The position numbers were made by a program, and so were the translations under genes. From Candidatus Poribacteria bacterium (lineage in GTDB: Bacteria; Poribacteria; WGA-4E; WGA-3G): a stretch of 64,000 nucleotides of DNA. Shown here in pieces: positions 26,538 through 42,134 of the stretch. The notes under the pieces were generated by a model. The model searched no databases and was not told where the DNA came from. It saw nothing but the letters and a program-made list of their open reading frames with translations. Each line of letters starts with the position of its first letter. Position 1 is the stretch's first letter. The DNA is taken from NCBI GenBank assembly GCA_028820635.1, contig JAPPIG010000074.1, positions 127,325 through 191,324 on the forward strand. Reading direction: 5' to 3'.

Positions 26538-29500
26538 TCATCGCGCTGATGCTTGCAAGGAAGTTGCTAATTTTCTGCGAAGAATAACACCCCATTGACC
26601 AACAACCCAAAGTGTTTTGCCGTTTTTTGCACGGGTGATAACATAGAGATTGTTATCAATATCAGTATGTTCCAGTTCCCACGTTTCACCACCATCAGTA
26701 GAGCGGATAATCGTTCCTTCTTCCCCAACTGCATAGAGTTTTTGTTCAGAAAGAGCGATAATACCATGTAGTGTTTTGGCAATCCCGCTCATCTTTGGTT
26801 GCCATGTAAAACCGCCATCCACTGTCTTTAGCACAATACCACCTTGTCCTACTGCCCATCCTATTCGTTTCGTAATAAATGAAACAGAATTGAGGTCATA
26901 AACTGTATTGGACTCGTGCAATCGCCAATAATCGCCACCGTTGATTGTTCGCTGAATGGTACCGCTTTGCCCAACCGCCCAACCGAGAGGGGCAAATTTC
27001 ATGTCAATGCTCATGAGCGTGTCGTTTGTCGTGGAGCGCTGGAGCGTCCACGTGGGACCGCCATCTTTGTTGTGAATAATGTCCCCAAATCTACCAGCCG
27101 CCCAACCTTCAGAAAACTTGCCAAAGTCAACGTCGTTCAGCGAGAATCTACCGGGAGAATCCCCTTCAAAGAAAGGCGGTCGTTCAGGTGTGTCACCTGC
27201 TGTCCACGTATTACCATCAGTTGTATATAGGACTGTGCCATCTCTACGCATTGTCCAACCCCACTTCGGTTCAAGACTTGCGAAATGGATACCGACAAGG
27301 CTTTGACGAGCATGGATTGCCATTTTCTCCCATGTTTTTCCAGCGTCTTGCGTTTCCAATAGAGTTCCATCACTATTCGCTATCCAACCGATTTTGTCAT
27401 TGAAAAAGAGGACTTTTCGGAAATCATTACGCTGCTGTTCACCAAGCTGACGTTCCCATGTTTCTCCACCGTTTGTTGTTCGGTAAATACTGCCTGCGCT
27501 TCCTACAGCCCATGCATGTTCTGCATCAAGGAAATAAACGCTGGCGATTCCGCTTCCGCCACGTCTAAACCTTCTCCTTTGTTCAGGTGGAGGAGGTGGC
27601 GGTTGTTCGGTTTGGATGGGATTCGCCTGCTCAGCATTAGGTGGCAATGTCCCTTCAGGTGCAAGACGACCCGGACGTTGCCGCTGTTGCCGAAGTTGTC
27701 TTTGGAATATATCTCCGAATGTTTCTTCAGCAGGTTGCGTGCTTTCTTCTTGATCTTCCGTTTCTTCTTTTTCAGATTCTTCAGGTGTTTCTGGCAGAGG
27801 TTGTCGCATTGCGAACATATCATTTCCTGTTGAAACAGGTACTGATTTCCAATTTACACCTTGATCTTCAGTGATGTACGCACCGCCGCCTCCGATTCCC
27901 CACGCATGTGTATGTGAACGGAAGGTGATACGTCTTAAACCGCGCGGGCTTTCTGTTGTGGCTCGCAATTTCCATGTTTCACCGCCATCTTCAGTCAACA
28001 AGGAATTTCCGTTACCGAGAATAACCCAGCCGTGTTTTTCGTCATCAAAATGGACGGCAATACCCGGTTGATTGGTCTTAGACTGAATTTTCCAGTAATT
28101 GCCACCATCAACAGTATGTAGAATGAAACCACCATCCCGACGTTGTGGGGCAACTGCCCAACCTTCCTGACTATTGATAAAATGAAGGTCTGTGATATTT
28201 GCATTTGTTGTGCCAGTTTTCTGAACTTTCCACGTTTTCCCTCCATCTGTTGTCCGCAAGATTTGCCCAATTGATGCACCAAGCCATCCTTCTTTTTCGT
28301 TTATAAACTGCATCATATTGATACGTGGCAGGTTCTGACGCGTTGTATTGACAATAGGTTTCCACGTTTCGCCACCATTTTCTGTCTGAAGTAAAACGTT
28401 TGATCCAAGAATTCGTCCATTTTTTTCGTCTGTAAATTCGATCTCACGTAGATTTTCACTGATACCGCTATGTTGTGGTAACCACGTTTTTCCACCATCT
28501 GTTGTACGAGCAATTGCACCACCCGAACCAACTGCCCATCCATTTTCTGCATCCACAAAATGCGTGTCGGCAAAATCTGTTCGCCATGTCGCCTGACGGA
28601 TAATATCCCAATGGTAGACAACGGCTTCAACAGGTGTTTCTTCTTCAACAATTACGGTTTCAGGTTCTTCAGCAACAGGCGGTAGTTTCGCAGGCAATTG
28701 GGCATTTTCAACTGTGTAATGCATCGCTATCCCACCTTTACCAACAGCAACCACCCCTTCGGGCGAGAGTGCTAATCCATAAAGGTCATTTTCGGTGCCG
28801 CTTTCTTGAAGTTCCCACCTTTTCCCACCATTGATGGTAGTAAGCATAACACCGTTATCACCAACGACTAATCCGTGTTGTGCATCTGCAAAATAGACTT
28901 TATTTAAATTCTCTTGGGTGCGACTATATTGAAGAGTCCATTTCTTTCCACCGTTTTTTGTATGTAGAATCTCGCCAAATTGTCCAACAATCCAACCTAT
29001 ATTTTCATCTACGAAGTATACTGCGTAAAGTTCATTAAAGGTATCAGTAGACTGCTGTTGCCATGTCAAGCCACCATCTTGAGTCGCCATACAGACACCT
29101 GGCCACCCGATTGCCCATCCTTTCTTTGCATCAAGAAAAAATACGCCTTTTAACATAATTGAATGGAAATCACCCACAGGGATTTGTGGAAGCCAGCTGT
29201 TTCCCCCATCAATTGTGTGTAGGATAGTGCCGAGGTCTCCAACAATCCAACCCGTTTTGGAATTAATAAAGTGGACAGAACGCAGCGTAAATGCTGAAGG
29301 TGCACGCTGCCGCTCCCAATTTGCCCCACCATCGCTTGTATGGATAATAAGTCCTCGTTCACCGACTGCCCATCCGTGCTTGTCAGTCGCAAAATAGATA
29401 TTCCAAATTCCGTCCCAGATATCTGTGTCCAGCTCGTTCCACGTTTGTCCGCCATCATTTGTCATAACCATCGTGCCGCGCTTACCAACTGCGACAGCAC

Positions 29501-30581
29501 GGTTAGCATCTGTGAACTGTACATTTTGCAAATCATTTGCTGTTGTCCCGCTGACCATCTCCCAGGTAGCACCTGCGTCTATTGTGCGAAGAATTGTGCC
29601 AGACCATCCGATTGCCCAAGCTTCTTTTTTAGTGGTAAACTGAACCGCTGTCAAATTGTTTTCTGTTCCGCTCTCCATCAATTGCCAATTATCACCACCG
29701 TCTTCTGTTCGGGTAATGAAACCGACATCAGCAACAGCAATGCCATAGTTTTCATCTGTAAAATGGATACTGTTAATTGTATCTCGGACGTGTCCATTAA
29801 TCAGTGGAATACGACTGTCTTGGCGTTCCCAATTAACACCACCAGTCGTTGTATGAAAGATGGAACCATCACTCCCAACAATCCAGCCTTCGTTGTCACC
29901 AATAAAAAAGACCTTCTTATTATCATTGATCATTCGGTCGCGTTCACCTTCAAACCGATTACTCTGTTCTTGCCATGACTTACCACCTGTTTTGGTGTGA
30001 AAAATCCTATCATACGTCCCAACAGCCCATCCTCTGTCATCATCAACGAACCAGACCCCGTTAAGCGGAAATTCACTTACCTGTTCAAACCGATTCCATG
30101 ATTTACCACCGTTTTGCGTATAGAGAACATCAGCATCTTCACCAACAATCCATCCTTCCATACCATTTGCAAAATATACATCACGAAGCATCGCAGAAGT
30201 TCCGCTTTCTTGTAAGTACCAGTGTCTACCACTATCATCAGTAGTTGCGATTAGACCGTCATGACCTACCGCCCATCCGTCTTTTTCATTAGCAAAATAG
30301 ACCGCTTTGAAATCACCTGTAGTATTTACTTCCTGCTTTTGCCATGTTTTCCCACCATCTGCTGTATGGACAATTACGCCACCAAGTCCGACAAGCCATC
30401 CCTTTTTCGCATTCACAAAGTGCAGATCAGTGAAGTTTGTCTCCCAATCCGCTTTCCGAGTTGCTTCCATCTTAACACAACCGTTGATAAAGAGCATGGC
30501 GGCAAGGATAAATGTGATAGTGTATGAAACGATGTTTACTTGCCAATTTCTCCATGAAAAATTACGATATTTGAACTGCAT
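26538..30581 (-). CDS. Giant Ycf48/BNR-like multi-propeller protein
   Basis: This 1347-residue protein has an N-terminal hydrophobic segment ending in LFINGC, suggesting a lipoprotein or membrane-anchored exported protein. I count about 26 repeats of the form GWAVG..G.I..T.DGG.TW, each about 40-45 residues, in three blocks of roughly 13, 6 and 7. Acidic/proline-rich linkers separate the blocks near residues 625-660 and 930-1007. These are the blades of Ycf48-like/sialidase-like beta propellers, which in photosystem assembly act as protein-binding factors; here only a binding scaffold outside the cytoplasm can be claimed. GGAGG precedes the start. It is convergent with the enhancer-binding protein gene, 13 bases apart. 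Confidence 0.88.
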   Translation of the reverse strand: MQFKYRNFSWRNWQVNIVSYTITFILAAMLFINGCVKMEATRKADWETNFTDLHFVNAKKGWLVGLGGVIVHTADGGKTWQKQEVNTTGDFKAVYFANEKDGWAVGHDGLIATTDDSGRHWYLQESGTSAMLRDVYFANGMEGWIVGEDADVLYTQNGGKSWNRFEQVSEFPLNGVWFVDDDRGWAVGTYDRIFHTKTGGKSWQEQSNRFEGERDRMINDNKKVFFIGDNEGWIVGSDGSIFHTTTGGVNWERQDSRIPLINGHVRDTINSIHFTDENYGIAVADVGFITRTEDGGDNWQLMESGTENNLTAVQFTTKKEAWAIGWSGTILRTIDAGATWEMVSGTTANDLQNVQFTDANRAVAVGKRGTMVMTNDGGQTWNELDTDIWDGIWNIYFATDKHGWAVGERGLIIHTSDGGANWERQRAPSAFTLRSVHFINSKTGWIVGDLGTILHTIDGGNSWLPQIPVGDFHSIMLKGVFFLDAKKGWAIGWPGVCMATQDGGLTWQQQSTDTFNELYAVYFVDENIGWIVGQFGEILHTKNGGKKWTLQYSRTQENLNKVYFADAQHGLVVGDNGVMLTTINGGKRWELQESGTENDLYGLALSPEGVVAVGKGGIAMHYTVENAQLPAKLPPVAEEPETVIVEEETPVEAVVYHWDIIRQATWRTDFADTHFVDAENGWAVGSGGAIARTTDGGKTWLPQHSGISENLREIEFTDEKNGRILGSNVLLQTENGGETWKPIVNTTRQNLPRINMMQFINEKEGWLGASIGQILRTTDGGKTWKVQKTGTTNANITDLHFINSQEGWAVAPQRRDGGFILHTVDGGNYWKIQSKTNQPGIAVHFDDEKHGWVILGNGNSLLTEDGGETWKLRATTESPRGLRRITFRSHTHAWGIGGGGAYITEDQGVNWKSVPVSTGNDMFAMRQPLPETPEESEKEETEDQEESTQPAEETFGDIFQRQLRQQRQRPGRLAPEGTLPPNAEQANPIQTEQPPPPPPEQRRRFRRGGSGIASVYFLDAEHAWAVGSAGSIYRTTNGGETWERQLGEQQRNDFRKVLFFNDKIGWIANSDGTLLETQDAGKTWEKMAIHARQSLVGIHFASLEPKWGWTMRRDGTVLYTTDGNTWTAGDTPERPPFFEGDSPGRFSLNDVDFGKFSEGWAAGRFGDIIHNKDGGPTWTLQRSTTNDTLMSIDMKFAPLGWAVGQSGTIQRTINGGDYWRLHESNTVYDLNSVSFITKRIGWAVGQGGIVLKTVDGGFTWQPKMSGIAKTLHGIIALSEQKLYAVGEEGTIIRSTDGGETWELEHTDIDNNLYVITRAKNGKTLWVVGQWGVILRRKLATSLQASAR

Positions 30582-34117: not shown

Positions 34118-35713
34118 ATGGAAAAATCAATATTTAAGTCTTTGAATTATTTAGGGTTTGTTCTGTTCTGTTTCGTAGTGTGGAATCCGTTCGTGATGGC
34201 GGATGGTCATGGCAAAAAGGAGCCAGTCAGTTACCACAAACAGATTGTGCCTATCCTCAAACGGAGCTGTCAAGGATGTCATCATCCTGGCGATCCGAAT
34301 GCAGACCTAATAGTTACATCTTATGCCGAACTCAAGCGTGGCGGAATGGCAGGAGAAGCAATCATCCCTGGCAAACCGGACGAAAGCCTCCTCATTGAAC
34401 TCATCTCCGGTGACCCACCCGCGATGCCGCAAAACCAAGATCCGCTTACCGCAGAAGAAATTGACCTATTTAAACGTTGGATTCTTGAAGGAGCGAAAGA
34501 CGATACACCTGAAGAAGCAGACGAAACGGACGCAGAATATCCAAGTTACACAGTGCCGCCCGTAGTTTCTGCTATGGCTTATTCACCCGATGGAAGCATA
34601 TTTGCAGTCTCTGGTGTTAATGAAGTTTTGCTGTATGACTCAAAGAGTTTTGAACTAAAAGCACGATTGGTAGGAAAAGCGCGTCGCATTCAATCAATTG
34701 TTTATGCTGATGGCGGAAAAATAGTTGGGATTGCAGGCGGATCCCCAGCACAATTTGGCGAGGTGCAGCTATGGGATACCGCAACTAACAAACTTATCAA
34801 AGCAATACGTTCCACTTATGATACGATCTATGGACTCTCTTTCTCACCCGATGCCAGTCGTGTTGCATTTGGAAGTTCGGATAAAACGGTACGCGTTATC
34901 TCAATCGCAGACGAAAAGGAACTTGTAAAATTTGACAATCACGGTGATTGGGTTTTCGGTACAGCTTTTTCTACTGACGGTTCACATTTTGTCAGTTGTA
35001 GTCGTGATACGGCACTCAAATTGGTTGAAGTAGATACGGGTTCTTTCGTAGATGATGTCAATTCAAGTAACAAAGGATATGGTGAAATAAACGCTATAGC
35101 GCGACATCCGAATACTGATCAAGTTTTGAGTGTCGGGGAAGACAGAATACCACGGCTCTACAGAATGTTCCGTCAAACCCGTAGGGACGTTGGCAACACA
35201 GATTTCAACCTTATCCGTGCTTACGAAGCGCAGTCAGGTTCAATTGAATCAGTTGCGTTTTCAGCAGATGGCACCAAATTTGCTGTCGGCAATGCTGCAG
35301 GTGAAGCGCGAATTTATAATGTAGCAGACGGAAAACGGCTTGTATCCATGCAAGGTGATACCGTCGGGGTTTTTGCTCTTGCATTTCATCCTGATGGCAC
35401 GCAACTCGCCACAGGCGGTTTTGACGGAAAAATCCGTATATTTGACGCTAACTCAGGCAAACAATTGAATATCTTTATGTCCGTGCCAATTGAAACAACA
35501 GCAAGTGAGGATGTAACTTTAACAGTAACAGGTATGACGTGACCGGCTTGTGTCGCAAAAGTGCAGGATGCACTTACAAAACATCAAAACGTTATCAGTG
35601 CTGAAGTTTCTCTACCCGATCAAGCAATTATTAAGGTTCGGAAGAACAGTGTTAAAGTTAACGAACTCACGAACGTTATTAAAACAGCGGGATTTACTGC
35701 AACTGCAAAATAG
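34118..35713 (+). CDS. Predicted selenoprotein: cytochrome-like/WD40 protein with UxxC HMA domain
   Basis: I read this as 531 residues with the TGA at 35540-35542 as selenocysteine 475. Residues 1-29 are a signal peptide. Residues 35-125 resemble the planctomycete cytochrome C-like domain with a CxxCH motif (SCQGCHHPGD) and ELISGDPPAMP. WD40-type blades fill about 145-455. The C-terminus is an HMA metal-binding domain, VTLTVTGMT-U-PACVAKVQDAL, where U replaces the first cysteine of the normal CxxC. After the TGA the frame stays open for 57 codons of clear HMA sequence to TAG at 35711-35713. The sulfatase ATG follows directly at 35714. A GTG at 34103 is an alternative start. A nonsense mutation is the competing reading. 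selABC/D are not in the window. Confidence 0.82.
35543..35579 (+). promoter_or_regulatory. Candidate bacterial SECIS element
   Basis: Directly downstream of the in-frame TGA, a perfect 7-bp stem AAGTGCA (35559-35565) / TGCACTT (35569-35575) closes a GGA loop. Twenty-three bases separate the TGA from the first loop G, within the 16-37 base range usual for bacterial SECIS elements. The stem-loop resembles the GCAGGUCUGC hairpin of E. coli fdhF. A lower stem TTGT/ACAA (35548-35551 with 35576-35579) can also form. It would recruit SelB with Sec-tRNA. Confidence 0.65.
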
Positions 35714-37268: not shown

Positions 37269-38090
37269 ATGTTCCGAAAATTTCTATTTTGCTTGACATT
37301 AATGCTAATATGTGGTTTAAATTTAGGAAATGCAGCAGTAGTAGAGGTAGGATTTCTCTATCTGGGCGATAACGGGCCATTTACCAAACCTGCAATGGAA
37401 TTCGCAAAAGACACGTTTAAAACAACGGAATTGGGTAAAGGTGACATAAAGAGTGATAAGTTAAAAAATTTCGCTGTCGTTTGGTGGAATGAAGGGGATT
37501 CTGACCCTGGTGCTTTGTCCAATGCCGAACTTGACGCGTTCATGGATTATGCGGAAAGCGGAGGTGCCCTCCTGTTGACAGGTAAGGCATTTAGTTATGC
37601 TACACCGATGGGTCTTGAGAATGCTCAACCACGCGCATTTGGACCCATTCTTGACGATGGAAGCAAAGTCGGCATAATCGTGTTACAAGAAACACTCGAT
37701 CTCGGACTGGTTGAGGGGCTTGTGAATGTTGATGGAAAAGCTCCCAAACTTGATGATAGGATTCAGTTAAATTCAACTGGATATCCGAAAAGCGGTGACT
37801 ATTTTGATAGTCTTGCAAAGAATTTTACCACTCTCGCTCATGCGTGGGAAGGTGGCGCTAATTATACGGACAGAATTGCAGCTTTTGGCTATTGGAAAGC
37901 AGGAGACGGCAAAGTGTTTAATATGAATTGGCGGCTTCCAAACTACCATGAGAATAATAAAAGTAGAGACCAGTTAGAACAAATTACAGAAAATGTTATC
38001 AATTGGTTAGCAAGTGAATCAGCGTATTTAGACGTATCCTCACACGGCAAATTGCCGGTTGTCTGGGGACATTTGAAAAATCAGAGGTAA
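37269..38090 (+). CDS. Secreted protein, glutamine amidotransferase-like fold (DUF4960/ThuA-like)
   Basis: This 273-residue protein has a signal peptide (MFRKFLFCLTLMLICGLNLGNAA, cleaved near residue 23). The mature part has an alpha/beta pattern like class I glutamine amidotransferase-related secreted domains: KNFAVVWWNEGD near 75, LDAFMDYAESGGALLLTGKAF near 93-113, and AAFGYWKAGDGKVFNMNWRLPNY near 205. No catalytic cysteine triad is evident, so it is probably non-catalytic or has another activity. AGGAGG lies seven bases before the ATG. It sits between the sulfatase and the DUF1549/DUF1553 gene and may belong to the same secreted system. The family call is tentative. Confidence 0.7.
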   Translation: MFRKFLFCLTLMLICGLNLGNAAVVEVGFLYLGDNGPFTKPAMEFAKDTFKTTELGKGDIKSDKLKNFAVVWWNEGDSDPGALSNAELDAFMDYAESGGALLLTGKAFSYATPMGLENAQPRAFGPILDDGSKVGIIVLQETLDLGLVEGLVNVDGKAPKLDDRIQLNSTGYPKSGDYFDSLAKNFTTLAHAWEGGANYTDRIAAFGYWKAGDGKVFNMNWRLPNYHENNKSRDQLEQITENVINWLASESAYLDVSSHGKLPVVWGHLKNQR

Positions 38091-38149
38091 AAGTAGATAG
38101 GCGGGTTAAACCGCTTTGTTAAAGTTTCATATCATCTATGGAGGTTAAT

Positions 38150-40627
38150 GTGAAACTCAGCTATAATTTGGTTATTGCACTTCTTGTTGCATTCTCCTGC
38201 TGTTTGATGTTTCAGTATTCAAGTTGGAGTCAAATGGAGGAGACAGTGCCGAGTGTAGACATTCCTGAAATTAAAGCACTAAAGACTCACCCTGAGTCGC
38301 TAACGTTAGAACATGCGCGTGATGGTCGTCGTGTACTTGTTTCGGGGCAAACGAAAGACGGAAAATGGGTTGATGTAACATCTTGGGCAGTGCTAAAACC
38401 TACATCAGATGGGGTAAAATTGCATGAAGATGGCTACATCTTTCCGAATTCAGTTGGAACGGCAGCAATTAAAGTTACAGTCAAAAATGTCAGCACAGAA
38501 TTACCGGTAACCATCAAGAGTATTGATGCACCGCCAGTGAGTTTTGTGCGAGATGTTATGCCTATTTTAAGCCATGCGGGTTGTAATAACGGCACCTGCC
38601 ACGGTGCTGCAAAAGGTAAAAACGGTTTCAAACTCTCACTGCGCGGCTACGATCCGGAATTCGACTATGAACTCCTGATTGAAGATATATCTGGTCGTCG
38701 CTTCAATCGTGCGTTTCCCGAACAGAGTCTCATGCTACTCAAACCGACATCTGAAGTGCCACACAAAGGTGGTCAGGTAATCGTGCCGGGTTCGCGTGAT
38801 TACGAACTCATCCATCAATGGATAAGTGAAGGCGTAGCGTCTGATGTCCAAAAAACTAAACGAGTTGAAAGGTTAGAGGTAATTCCGGGATCCGCGGAGT
38901 TGTCTATTCCCGGAAATAAGCAACAGTTGATAGTCATTGCGCACTATCCTGATGGCACAACACGCGATGTTACCCGTGAAGCAAAATTTACCAGCAGTGT
39001 GGGTGAAGTCGCGAAGGTGACAGACGAAGGTGTGGTTACTGCGGAACGCCGTGGAGAAACCGCTATCTTGACTCGATATGAAGGTGCTTATAGCACAAAC
39101 GGCATCATCGTTATGGATGATAGAAGCGGTTTTGAGTGGGTTGAAACGCCTGAATACAACTACATTGATACACATGTCCATAACAAACTGAAACGGTTGA
39201 AGATTTTGCCATCTGAATTATGCACAGATGAGGAATTCGTTCGGCGTATCTACTTTGATATGACGGGACTTCCACCAGTGCCCGATCAGGTGAGGAATTT
39301 CCTCGCGGATAAAACACCGTCTAAGGAAAAACGCGAAAAATTGATTGATGCACTGGCCGAAACATCTGAGTATGTTGACCATTGGACACATAAATGGGGT
39401 GACCTGTTACAATCAAACCGTAAATTCCTCGGTGAACGCGGCATGTGGCTTTTCCAGCAATGGATACATGAATCAATTGCCGAAAATCGTCCGTATAATA
39501 AATTTGTGCATGACTTGATTACTGCAACTGGTAGTGCGTATTCCAATCCAGCGGCAAATTATTTCCGTGTTTCGCGCGAATACACTGCTGCTGTGGAAAA
39601 CACGACTCAGCTTTTCCTTGGCGTTAGATTCTCTTGTAACAAATGCCATGATCATCCGTTTGAAGTATGGACCCAAAATCAATACTATGAATTGGGGGCA
39701 TTTTTCTCAGATGTTAAAGTGAAGAACGGACGGTTACCGGGTGAAGAAGTTGTATACGCAAGTTTCAATCCTACTCCGGTTAAACATCCAAGAACGTTGG
39801 CAGTTGTTCCAGCATCAGTTCCGTTTGGAGAAACAAAGGAAGATGTTCCCGATAAGCGGGAATCTCTGGCAGAATGGCTCACATCTGCTGAAAATCCGAT
39901 GTTCGCAAAAGCAGGTGTTAACCGTATATGGAGTTACTTCATGGGACGCGGTATCATTGAACCCGTCGATGATATACGAACAAGTAACCCGCCAAGTAAT
40001 CCAGAATTGCTTGATGCACTGACGAAAGATTTCGTAGATAGCGGTTTTGATATAAAACATATCATGAAAACAATCGCTCGCTCTCGAACTTATCAACAGA
40101 GTATCAAGACGAACAAGTGGAACAAAGCAGATACGATTAATTTCTCGCATGCAACTGCACGACGTTTGACAGCAGAACAGTTGTTAGATGCTATCGGCGT
40201 TGCTACGGGAAGTCAACCGAAGTTTGAAGGTGTTCCAAAAGACTTCCGTGCTGTTCAATTGCCTGACAGCAAAGTTAAGGATGACGGCTTTTTGAAATTG
40301 TTTGGTCGTCCAGAACGCGAAAGTTCATGTGAATGTGAAAGAACGACAGAAGTAAGCCTCGCACATGCGATGAACCTTATCAACGGACCGACGGTTGCGA
40401 ATGCAATTATTGATCCTAAAGGACGAATTGCTAAACTCATCAAAGAAGATAAAGATGATCGTACACTCATTGAAGAGATGTATCTCGCAACATTTGCTCG
40501 GTTACCGCAAGAAAATGAATATAAGACAGCGGCTGAACATCTTGCAAGTGCCGAATCTAAGGAAGAAGGCGCGCAAGATTTAATGTGGGCATTAATTAAT
40601 AGTCCCGCTTTCTTGTTCAATCGCTAA
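38150..40627 (+). CDS. DUF1549 and DUF1553 domain protein (planctomycete-type cytochrome-like)
   Basis: The GTG at 38150 is chosen because GGAGG at 38140-38144 lies five bases upstream; an ATG at 38138 overlaps that site. The protein of 825 residues has a signal peptide, an Ig-like (Big2-type) region with VLVSGQTKDGKWVDVT, then DVMPILSHAGCNNGTCHGAAKG near 130-152 with a possible haem-binding CxxxxCH. A second Big2-like region lies near 245-325, followed by DUF1549 (IYFDMTGLPPVPDQVR; KWGDLLQSNR; RFSCNKCHDHPFEVWTQ) and DUF1553 (NRIWSYFMGRGIIEPVDDIRTSNPPSNPELLDAL). These are typical of planctomycetes and relatives, with unknown activity, usually paired with DUF1501 as here. Confidence 0.93.
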   Translation: MKLSYNLVIALLVAFSCCLMFQYSSWSQMEETVPSVDIPEIKALKTHPESLTLEHARDGRRVLVSGQTKDGKWVDVTSWAVLKPTSDGVKLHEDGYIFPNSVGTAAIKVTVKNVSTELPVTIKSIDAPPVSFVRDVMPILSHAGCNNGTCHGAAKGKNGFKLSLRGYDPEFDYELLIEDISGRRFNRAFPEQSLMLLKPTSEVPHKGGQVIVPGSRDYELIHQWISEGVASDVQKTKRVERLEVIPGSAELSIPGNKQQLIVIAHYPDGTTRDVTREAKFTSSVGEVAKVTDEGVVTAERRGETAILTRYEGAYSTNGIIVMDDRSGFEWVETPEYNYIDTHVHNKLKRLKILPSELCTDEEFVRRIYFDMTGLPPVPDQVRNFLADKTPSKEKREKLIDALAETSEYVDHWTHKWGDLLQSNRKFLGERGMWLFQQWIHESIAENRPYNKFVHDLITATGSAYSNPAANYFRVSREYTAAVENTTQLFLGVRFSCNKCHDHPFEVWTQNQYYELGAFFSDVKVKNGRLPGEEVVYASFNPTPVKHPRTLAVVPASVPFGETKEDVPDKRESLAEWLTSAENPMFAKAGVNRIWSYFMGRGIIEPVDDIRTSNPPSNPELLDALTKDFVDSGFDIKHIMKTIARSRTYQQSIKTNKWNKADTINFSHATARRLTAEQLLDAIGVATGSQPKFEGVPKDFRAVQLPDSKVKDDGFLKLFGRPERESSCECERTTEVSLAHAMNLINGPTVANAIIDPKGRIAKLIKEDKDDRTLIEEMYLATFARLPQENEYKTAAEHLASAESKEEGAQDLMWALINSPAFLFNR

Positions 40628-40688
40628 GCCCTATACCGATCTGTGCGTTCCACAACGGAGATGGCACAGAAAATGGAGGAAATAATTG

Positions 40689-42134
40689 ATGTTATCGTTA
40701 CCACAAGCACCCGGAAGATTATGTGATGGGTTCTCACGTAGAGAATTTCTCCGCGTGGGTGGCGCGGCGATGCTGGGCATTAGCATACCACAAGTATTGT
40801 CACTCCAAGCCAAGGCAAGCACGACAGTTGACCCCGCGAAGCCTCTGAACGGTTGGGGCAAAGCCAATTCTGTCATTCTCCTGTTCTTGCAAGGCGGACC
40901 AAGTCACATTGATATCTGGGATCCAAAGCCAGATGCACCTTCTAATATCCGTGGTGAATTTAATCCTATCCCAACGAATGTCCCTGGCATTCAGTTGTCA
41001 GAAACAATGCCTCGTTTGGCGCAACAGATGGATAAAGCATGTCTTATCCGTTCAGTAAGTTACACGCCAGCAGGACTTTTCAATCACACTGCTGCGATGT
41101 ACCAGATGGTTACAGGCGAAACACCGGACAAGGTTGCACCTTCAGGGCAGCTTGACCCACCTTCACCTGCTGATCATCCAAACGCTGCAGCGCATATCGC
41201 CAAGATCAGACCGCCAGATGAACCGATGTTGGCAGCAGTCCAACTCCCGCGTCCTATGCAAGAAAGTGGCATCATCGGTAAAGGTGGAAATGCGGGTTTC
41301 CTTGGTAGAGCGTATGACCCATATTTTCTCTTCCAGGACCCCAATACGGAGATAAATCTTGACGATTTGACGCTACGTCCAGAAATTCCACCCGCTCGTT
41401 TACAGCGGCGGAAAACGCTCCTTGAAACAATCAACGCCAATATGCCCGAAATTGACAAAGTAGCAGAGTCTTACGCATTGAACGAATACTACGAAAAAGC
41501 GTATAACCTCATCTTATCTCAGAAGGCACGTAACGCGTTTGATTTGGCGCAGGAAACTGACGAAATGCGTGACAAATACGGTCGTCATACATTTGGTCAG
41601 AGCGCACTTCTTGCACGCCGACTGGTTGAAGCTGGCACACGTTTCGTTCAAGTCAACTGGCCTTCTGTTGCGAACGGCAATCCAAATACTACGGCATGGG
41701 ATACCCACGCAGCTAACTTCGGACCACTGAAAAACCTTCACTGCCCGAAATTGGATAGTGCGGTTTCTTCACTACTCGAAGATTTAGATCAGCGCGGTAT
41801 GTTGGAAAGCACGCTTGTTCTTGCTATTGGGGAATTTGGTCGTTCACCGAGAATGGGTGTTAGCACCTCTGGTAACGGAAACGCACCAGACGGGCGTGAC
41901 CACTGGCCGTATTGCTATACCGGTTTAATCGCTGGTGCTGGTGTCAAAGGTGGTCAGGTTTACGGTAAGTCTGATGACACAGGTTCAACGCCTCTTGAGA
42001 AACCAGTGCATCCGCGGGATATCCTCGCTACGATTTACCACACGCTTGGTATTGACCCGCACACTATTGTGATGAATCACTTAGACCAACCACGTGAATT
42101 GGTCAAAGGTGAAGTCATTACCGGGATATTCTAA
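40689..42134 (+). CDS. DUF1501 family protein (Tat-exported, sulfatase-like fold)
   Basis: The ATG at 40689 is preferred over a TTG three bases earlier. The 481-residue protein has a twin-arginine signal (FSRREFLRVGGAAMLG near residues 17-32), implying export in folded form. The DUF1501 domain includes LLFLQGGPSHIDIWDPKP near 62-79, AWDTHAANFGPLKN near 337, LVLAIGEFGRSPRMG near 377 and GRDHWPYCYTGLIAGAGVKGG near 400-420. These are placed like the metal ligands of alkaline-phosphatase-superfamily enzymes, to which DUF1501 is distantly related. The substrate is unknown. It follows the DUF1549/DUF1553 gene in the same transcript and a strong terminator lies just downstream. Confidence 0.93.
   Translation: MLSLPQAPGRLCDGFSRREFLRVGGAAMLGISIPQVLSLQAKASTTVDPAKPLNGWGKANSVILLFLQGGPSHIDIWDPKPDAPSNIRGEFNPIPTNVPGIQLSETMPRLAQQMDKACLIRSVSYTPAGLFNHTAAMYQMVTGETPDKVAPSGQLDPPSPADHPNAAAHIAKIRPPDEPMLAAVQLPRPMQESGIIGKGGNAGFLGRAYDPYFLFQDPNTEINLDDLTLRPEIPPARLQRRKTLLETINANMPEIDKVAESYALNEYYEKAYNLILSQKARNAFDLAQETDEMRDKYGRHTFGQSALLARRLVEAGTRFVQVNWPSVANGNPNTTAWDTHAANFGPLKNLHCPKLDSAVSSLLEDLDQRGMLESTLVLAIGEFGRSPRMGVSTSGNGNAPDGRDHWPYCYTGLIAGAGVKGGQVYGKSDDTGSTPLEKPVHPRDILATIYHTLGIDPHTIVMNHLDQPRELVKGEVITGIF

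What the first reader, a model, noticed from the sequence alone, without database searches (positions are those of the whole stretch)
34118..35713. Selenocysteine-containing HMA domain (UxxC) on a secreted cytochrome-like/WD40 protein
The TGA at 35540-35542 interrupts one reading frame exactly at the first cysteine of a GMTCPACV metal-binding motif. The 57 codons after it encode a canonical HMA fold (PACVAKVQDALTKHQNV onward to GFTATAK) with no other stop. The next gene's ATG follows the extended stop directly, as in a coupled operon. Seen: frame, motif and spacing. Known: bacterial Sec often replaces a redox or metal cysteine. Inferred: the product is a copper or mercury binding selenoprotein outside the cytoplasm. 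I cannot check whether such a fusion has been reported.
Basis: partly seen in the sequence, partly recalled or inferred. Interest (0 to 1): 0.93.

Follow-up and report, generated by a model that had tools for sequence, protein, structure and literature searches.

The report
Selenocysteine metal-binding tail on cytochrome-propeller protein
A Poribacteria-like bacterium carries a gene for a predicted exported cytochrome-propeller protein whose in-frame UGA codon is likely read as selenocysteine at the predicted metal-binding site of a copper/mercury-type domain; the same codon and its RNA hairpin recur in relatives, so this looks like a selenium-based metal-handling protein that databases cut short.

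Summary
The TGA at 35540-35542 is the only in-frame stop before TAG 35711 and falls on the first Cys position of an HMA GMTCxxC motif. The genome has selA, selB, selD and tRNA-Sec. Of 56 named relatives with the HMA tail, 54 have TGA at this codon and two have Cys. In 55 TGA sequences 160 codon columns have an invariant residue; only three use a single codon, and all three lie in a hairpin (loop 23 nt after the TGA) that fits the bacterial SECIS model, with one energy criterion borderline. The 56 downstream codons are under purifying selection. In this genome the TGA-hairpin pattern occurs only at three HMA genes. The protein is a PSCyt1 cytochrome domain, a WD40 propeller and an HMA domain; nine of eleven verrucomicrobial and acidobacterial relatives lack the tail, two are cut by contig ends. 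Two adjacent putative lipoproteins of the same genome, and arrays with three or four predicted Sec in four relatives, carry the same UxxC-HMA unit. Selenocysteine insertion is strongly supported by comparison but unproven chemically; Cu/Hg binding is inferred. HMA-type selenoproteins are known; this architecture was not found in the papers searched.

The parts
34118..35713 (+). Whole coding sequence read with TGA as Sec: 531 aa, stop TAG 35711-35713
34118..34204 (+). N-terminal hydrophobic segment, signal-peptide-like (inferred from sequence; AF2 helix 2-27; no signal-peptide program was run)
34268..34429 (+). PSCyt1 (PF07635) c-type cytochrome domain, residues 51-104, heme motif CQGCH at 34268-34282; C51, G53, C54, H55 invariant in 24 aligned sequences
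34574..35485 (+). WD40 beta-propeller, about residues 153-456
35504..35710 (+). HMA domain (PF00403), about residues 463-531, beta-alpha-beta-beta-alpha-beta, site GMT-U-PAC
35540..35542 (+). In-frame TGA, predicted Sec codon (residue 475)
35559..35575 (+). Predicted bacterial SECIS hairpin: 7-bp stem AAGUGCA/UGCACUU, loop GGA, 23 nt between UGA and loop
35714..37180 (+). Sulfatase-family gene directly downstream (start more likely 35726)
37269..38090 (+). 273-aa protein, no family match; also found near the gene in many relatives
38138..40627 (+). PSCyt2/PSD1 (DUF1549/DUF1553) protein; relatives lie near the gene in Poribacteria and in several Verrucomicrobia loci
40686..42134 (+). DUF1501 protein; relatives lie near the gene in several Poribacteria and Verrucomicrobia loci

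Best explanation
The gene at 34118-35713 is likely translated through its single in-frame UGA (35540-35542) as selenocysteine, giving a predicted exported PSCyt1 cytochrome-WD40 protein whose C-terminal HMA domain would bind a soft metal ion, probably Cu(I) or Hg(II), through a Sec-x-x-Cys site. Shown: the frame, the UGA at a Cys position, Cys-encoding homologues, the Sec machinery genes, a hairpin after the UGA kept at synonymous sites, purifying selection on the downstream codons, and an HMA domain by profile (fold by predicted model). Inferred: SelB carries Sec-tRNA to this UGA by binding the hairpin; because recoding competes with termination, some product would stop at residue 474, about the length of the HMA-less family members. 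Inferred: outside the cytoplasm the selenol, at the exposed N-terminal metal ligand, captures or hands on a soft metal beside a heme protein of a sulfatase/PSCyt gene cluster. Sec-HMA lipoproteins and arrays of the same and related genomes would do similar work.
For: Machinery in the same genome: selB 348.7 bits (cut-off 242.25), tRNA-Sec 78.1 (47) next to selB, selA 611.8 (267.9), selD 370.1 (125), itself with one in-frame TGA. Sec/Cys pairing: 54 TGA, 1 TGT, 1 TGC in 56 named loci; a third Cys form in G019. selB passes E 1e-60 in 54 of the 60 genomes with the TGA form; the six without a hit are 73-83% complete. SECIS: in 55 TGA rows, of 160 invariant-residue columns only 482 GTG, 483 CAG and 485 GCA have one codon; 114 of 114 distinct Sec units keep all five core pairs at a fixed place, 1 of 11 Cys units does. 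Pattern TGA-N18-GTGCAGNNTGCAC: four hits in 5.97 Mb, being the three Sec-HMA sites plus the opposite strand of one of them; reversed control zero. Selection. Fold: HMA 38.7 bits vs cut-off 24.8; best structure matches a copper-ATPase HMA7 domain and MerP, TM 0.92 and 0.91. Cu/Hg rather than Zn: a profile of tails and lipoproteins matches ATP7B, CopA, MerP and CopZ chains better than ZntA; GMT before the site is the Cu/Hg type (recalled).
Against: No protein or selenium was measured. The hairpin alone folds at -7.4 kcal/mol, just missing the published limit of -7.5 (40 nt: -11.0), and the region's energy is not unusual against shuffles (z -0.49 to -1.10). dN/dS is higher after the TGA (0.124) than before (0.047), so the tail is less constrained than the body. 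The three Cys forms are in genomes that have selB, so Sec is not indispensable. Of the 11 Cys units, three come from long, ATPase-sized frames and are not near kin. No Rfam family matched the window. Nothing here tests metal binding; a selenenylsulfide redox role is not excluded. The tree did not resolve whether Sec or Cys came first.
Confidence: 0.82

Rival explanations
1. Se-S redox relay: the tail is a selenoprotein, but the Sec-Cys pair works as a selenenylsulfide/selenol redox couple exchanging electrons with the PSCyt1 heme rather than binding metal.
For: Sec is often at the active site of redox proteins (PMC13188914, abstract start and passages); a c-type heme motif is invariant in the same chain.
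Against: The domain is a canonical HMA metal-binding fold by model, with the whole GMTxxxC motif kept; the same unit occurs in small lipoproteins and arrays whose printed sequences show no CxxCH heme motif.
Confidence: 0.25
2. UGA is a selenium-dependent switch: termination gives the ordinary 474-aa cytochrome-WD40 protein, read-through adds the HMA tail, and both products are functional.
For: HMA-less relatives end near this point: in 9 of 11 verrucomicrobial/acidobacterial loci the frame shows no HMA after the match, the other two being cut by contig ends. A paper reports 30-40% recoding at a UGA-SECIS in vivo (PMC4513850, abstract start in the search listing).
Against: No expression data; three Cys forms in this phylum are unsplit; a terminated by-product is to be expected of Sec decoding without any function.
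Confidence: 0.25
3. The TGA is a true stop and the downstream HMA is untranslated or decaying.
For: All 120 listed database homologues are 448-494 aa long and cover at most 89% of the 531-aa query, as if predicted to stop here.
Against: Purifying selection after TGA, TAG/TAA at the end of the tail in 52 of 55 rows, Cys read-through forms, hairpin conserved at wobble sites.
Confidence: 0.02
4. The organism reads UGA as tryptophan (code 4); several public protein predictions of the small relatives have W here.
For: 9 of the 16 proteins looked at carry W at the site: P0121, P0122, P0132, P0135, P0136, P0137, P0139, P0148, P0153.
Against: 9 of 42 mechanical ORFs of 200 aa or more in the window end in TGA, ours counted; the frame uses TGG four times; the three sense homologues of this gene have Cys; Sec machinery present. 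The W looks like a gene-caller artefact (inference).
Confidence: 0.01

Closest known systems
Sec-containing cation-transporting E1-E2 ATPase (UxxC)
   Same: UxxC motif in a metal-transport protein predicted as a selenoprotein (PMC13188914, PMC9312934 and PMC2398784, table passages)
   Different: Membrane ATPase; ours has no ATPase match and is fused to a cytochrome-WD40 protein. The passages do not say where in the ATPase the motif lies
Mercuric transport protein MerP selenoprotein (GOS metagenome) and NCBIfam NF045683 MerT/CopZ fusion-like selenoprotein
   Same: Mercury/copper-type selenoproteins
   Different: By name stand-alone or MerT-fused; ours scores 32.4 against TIGR02052's cut-off of 92.55, and NF045683 is not among its matches
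NCBIfam NF041115 UxxU metal-binding (seleno)protein
   Same: Matches the tail at 32.9 bits
   Different: Below the cut-off of 95 bits; listed with two Sec (UxxU) and a 74-position profile, so no such fusion
PSCyt1-WD40 proteins beside PSCyt2/PSD1 and DUF1501 genes in Verrucomicrobia/Acidobacteria
   Same: Same body and, in several loci, gene neighbours; sulfatase genes often lie near PSCyt genes in some freshwater Verrucomicrobia (PMC5615132, passages)
   Different: No HMA tail in 9 of 11 loci fetched; the other two are cut by contig ends

Membership tests
Bacterial selenoprotein | Single in-frame UGA with conserved coding sequence after it | tested here: met
Bacterial selenoprotein | Cys in the Sec position of homologues | tested here: met
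   L101 TGT, L102 TGC; G019
Bacterial selenoprotein | SelA, SelB, SelD and tRNA-Sec in the genome | tested here: met
Bacterial selenoprotein | bSECIS shape: loop 3-9 nt, stem 4-16 bp, G in first two loop bases, 16-37 nt from UGA (criteria from PMC13188914) | tested here: met
   loop GGA, 7 bp, 23 nt; five core pairs kept in 114 of 114 Sec units
Bacterial selenoprotein | bSECIS energy of -7.5 kcal/mol or lower | tested here: inconclusive
   -7.4 for the hairpin alone, -11.0 for 40 nt
Bacterial selenoprotein | Selenium present in the purified protein | not testable with these tools
   needs 75Se or MS
HMA domain (PF00403) | Profile score above the gathering cut-off | tested here: met
   38.7 vs 24.8 bits for the tail; 28.8 in the genome search
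HMA domain (PF00403) | beta-alpha-beta-beta-alpha-beta fold | tested here: met
   (predicted models)
HMA domain (PF00403) | Metal binding through the CxxC (here UxxC) site | not testable with these tools
   motif conserved only
PSCyt1 planctomycete-type cytochrome (PF07635) | Profile above cut-off with CxxCH | tested here: met
   38.2 vs 22 bits; CQGCH
NF041115 UxxU metal-binding selenoprotein | Score above 95 bits | tested here: not met
   32.9 bits
MerP (TIGR02052) | Score above 92.55 bits | tested here: not met
   32.4 bits

The most novel reading that the evidence does not exclude
Poribacteria run a dedicated selenium-based metal-handling system outside the cytoplasm: one UxxC-HMA unit with one shared SECIS hairpin has been copied onto a cytochrome-WD40 protein, onto paired lipoproteins and into tandem arrays with up to four selenocysteines per chain, so that selenol chemistry captures soft metals at the surface of sponge symbionts and is coupled to the PSCyt/sulfatase machinery.
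Probability: 0.45. Interest if true: 0.8.

Novelty: new variant of a known kind. Interest (0 to 1): 0.68.

Why it matters
It would show selenocysteine at a metal-ligand position rather than a classical redox site, kept in many genomes of an uncultured phylum, in an architecture that database predictions truncate at the UGA. It gives a sharply testable case of why evolution pays for selenium at a metal site, since natural Sec and Cys forms of the same protein exist in genomes with selB. The shared SECIS hairpin and the predicted multi-Sec arrays offer a way to test repeated UGA decoding in one bacterial message.

Tried and rejected
Read error, true stop and UGA=Trp were considered and rejected. 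Free-energy z-scores of the region gave no support; the codon-level test did. Rfam found nothing in the window at gathering scores. A protein-database search scoring only the tail found nothing at E 0.001 among 32 candidates, which is weak evidence because the homologues listed are predicted without the tail. A tree of the body could not say whether Sec or Cys is older (L116 and L108 are on long end branches and the Verrucomicrobia join by a long one). Literature searches. Poribacteria with selenoprotein gave 0 papers; selenoprotein with heavy metal-associated domain and bacteria gave 0; Poribacteria with selenocysteine gave 2, neither describing such a protein in the passages read. Other listings were seen by title and abstract start only, and one search listed 20 of 885 papers. 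The library lacks most subscription papers, so absence in print is not shown.

Base-pair covariation was not counted: the stem barely varies, so it would have been uninformative. Rows dropped: one search left out L107 and L109 (no tail); one search kept only units with the HMA motif in an open stretch and did not scan L107-L119 (done); one search used 778 of 1485 pairs, dropping saturated or too close ones.

Full report
Observation. The frame 34118-35713 is open apart from one TGA at 35540-35542, which lies at the first Cys position of an HMA motif (GMT-U-PAC). Fifty-six codons follow up to TAG. The window lies in contig C125 of an unnamed 5.97-Mb genome, 93.7% complete. Its best named protein relative and its nearest named loci are Candidatus Poribacteria.

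Machinery. The genome has selB (348.7 bits; cut-off 242.25), tRNA-Sec beside it on contig C49 (78.1; 47), selA (611.8; 267.9) and selD (370.1; 125). The selD frame itself holds one in-frame TGA (VKCAG-U-ASK). selB passes E 1e-60 in 75 of 84 phylum genomes.

Relatives. A genome search found the gene in 66 of 84 phylum genomes at E 1e-60. In the 57 of family f1, the window's own included, the best match has one TGA; its place is residue 475 in 30 of the 30 that were fetched. In family f4, G024 and G026 have the TGA and G025 too (one search had aligned only the body). Three f3 genomes (G015, G019, G022) have Cys, and three f7 genomes (G008-G010) have no HMA tail. So 60 of 63 HMA-bearing genomes have TGA and 3 have Cys. 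Of the 60, 54 have a selB hit; the six without are 73-83% complete. In the public genome collection 69 loci came back. Of these, 56 have the tail (54 TGA, TGT in L101, TGC in L102). Two poribacterial loci lack it (L107, L108), and so do 9 of 11 from Verrucomicrobiota and Acidobacteriota; L115 and L118 are cut by contig ends. The Cys genomes have selB too, so Cys there does not follow from losing the machinery.

Coding after the TGA. Among 55 TGA rows (54 loci plus the window) the tail ends in TAG or TAA in 52; the other three end in TGA one codon later. dN/dS, by a simple Nei-Gojobori script, had a median of 0.124 after and 0.047 before the TGA in the 778 of 1485 pairs that were neither saturated nor too close; none reached 1 after the TGA. 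The tail is coding, though less constrained than the body.

The hairpin. AAGUGCA-GGA-UGCACUU stands at 35559-35575, its loop 23 nt after the UGA. Published criteria, read in passages of PMC13188914, are loop 3-9 nt, stem 4-16 bp, G in the first two loop bases, 16-37 nt spacing, and energy at or below -7.5. The first four are met; the energy is -7.4 alone and -11.0 in 40 nt. Shuffles do not make the region's energy special. The decisive test is at codon level: of 160 columns with an invariant residue (M, W, U excluded; at least 50 rows), three have one codon only, 482 GTG, 483 CAG and 485 GCA, all in this stem-loop. In 125 distinct HMA units found by motif and open frame, all 114 Sec units keep five of five core pairs at the fixed place; of 11 Cys units one does. 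The script's motif itself asks for V, Q/E, A/M and L/I residues there, but not for codons, and three of the 11 Cys units (L131, L135, L148) come from ATPase-sized frames. The pattern TGA-N18-GTGCAGNNTGCAC hits four times in the own genome: this gene, the two lipoproteins, and the opposite strand of one lipoprotein hairpin. The reversed control gave none there, and one hit in all 84 genomes; 66 of 84 genomes have the pattern, and some hits elsewhere are not at HMA genes.

Domains. PSCyt1 (38.2 bits, cut-off 22), WD40, HMA (38.7 bits, cut-off 24.8). The heme motif CQGCH is kept, with C51, G53, C54 and H55 invariant in 24 aligned sequences. The AlphaFold model of the whole has mean pLDDT 82.8 with a beta-alpha-beta-beta-alpha-beta tail; the heme-motif stretch 52-61 is modelled poorly. 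The body matches solved 7-bladed propellers. The tail modelled alone (pLDDT 81.5) matches the copper-ATPase HMA7 domain and MerP best (TM 0.92, 0.91). By sequence profile ATP7B, CopA, MerP and CopZ chains score better than ZntA. Copper or mercury is therefore the likely metal; this is inference.

Neighbours. Downstream lie a sulfatase, a 273-aa protein without family match, PSCyt2/PSD1 and DUF1501. The sulfatase matches within 240 nt of the TGA in 35 of 56 named HMA-bearing loci, farther off in 12, and is not found downstream in the held stretch in 9. PSCyt2/PSD1 and DUF1501 relatives also follow HMA-less family members in several Verrucomicrobia loci, so the PSCyt1-WD40/PSCyt2/DUF1501 trio looks like the older set and the HMA tail a poribacterial addition in this sample. 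PMC5615132 (passages) says nothing is known of the functions of such PSCyt genes and that sulfatase genes are often near them in some genomes.

A wider set. The own genome has four HMA matches at E 0.1: one without a stop in a 749-aa frame, ours, and two with one TGA each on C135. These two are adjacent putative lipoproteins with GMTUAAC and GMTUGNC. A search with the first gave 150 matches in 70 of 84 genomes: 139 have one TGA and 11 have none. Some of these are other HMA genes; by frame length and place I count 8 TGA matches and 2 without stop as the WD40 gene itself. In L198, L199 and L201 a single frame holds three Sec-HMA units plus a Cys-type unit, in L200 four plus one.

What is known. 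PMC13188914 (2026 review; passages) lists a UxxC cation ATPase, mercuric transport proteins and a UxxU metal-binding protein; searches of its text for Poribacter, WD40 and HMA found none. PMC2398784 lists MerP and the ATPase (passage). PMC12013277 and PMC5029168 gave no such protein in the passages seen. PMC5649159 reports SelA and SelB in the majority of sponge symbiont bins (passage). So HMA-type selenoproteins are a known kind; the fusion to PSCyt1-WD40, the paired lipoproteins and the arrays were not found in the searches listed under Tried and rejected.

Verdict. Selenocysteine at residue 475 is strongly supported by sequence comparison. The metal role is probable, the physiological role open.

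Noticed in passing
L198, L199, L200, L201 (G046:C77:28933-29802, G070:C44:316693-317562, G075:C30:77427-78536, G028:C2:3124166-3125155): Single reading frames of 330-406 aa with three or four UxxC HMA units plus one CxxC unit each; predicted bacterial proteins with 3-4 Sec. In L201 the last unit is GMMCDAC.
   Followed up: partly
L121:892-1347 and 1465-1848, strand - (own genome C135): Two adjacent putative lipoproteins each with one Sec-HMA domain and the same hairpin core.
   Followed up: partly
P0121, P0122, P0132, P0135, P0136, P0137, P0139, P0148, P0153: Public predictions of the small Sec-HMA proteins carry W at the UGA (9 of 16 looked at), perhaps because the gene caller chose code 4.
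   Followed up: partly
L019/L165 (own genome C112:62937-63863): SelD itself has an in-frame TGA (VKCAG-U-ASK), a likely selenoprotein.
   Followed up: partly
G027:C53:7070-7654: A second, partial WD40-HMA match with its own TGA just downstream of the full copy, perhaps a tandem duplicate.
   Followed up: no
G035:C188:1480-2664: A second copy of the gene (78% identical to the query) with TGA in one assembly, possibly contamination.
   Followed up: no
G013:C43:9731, G030:C28:55781, G047:C126:32577 and others: A recurring match TGACTGAGG...GTGCAGTATGCAC that is not at the known HMA sites; may be ordinary coding in another frame.
   Followed up: no
window 26538-30581: 1347-aa protein on the minus strand with many repeats of a GWxVGxxGxIxxTxDGGxTW type.
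   Followed up: no
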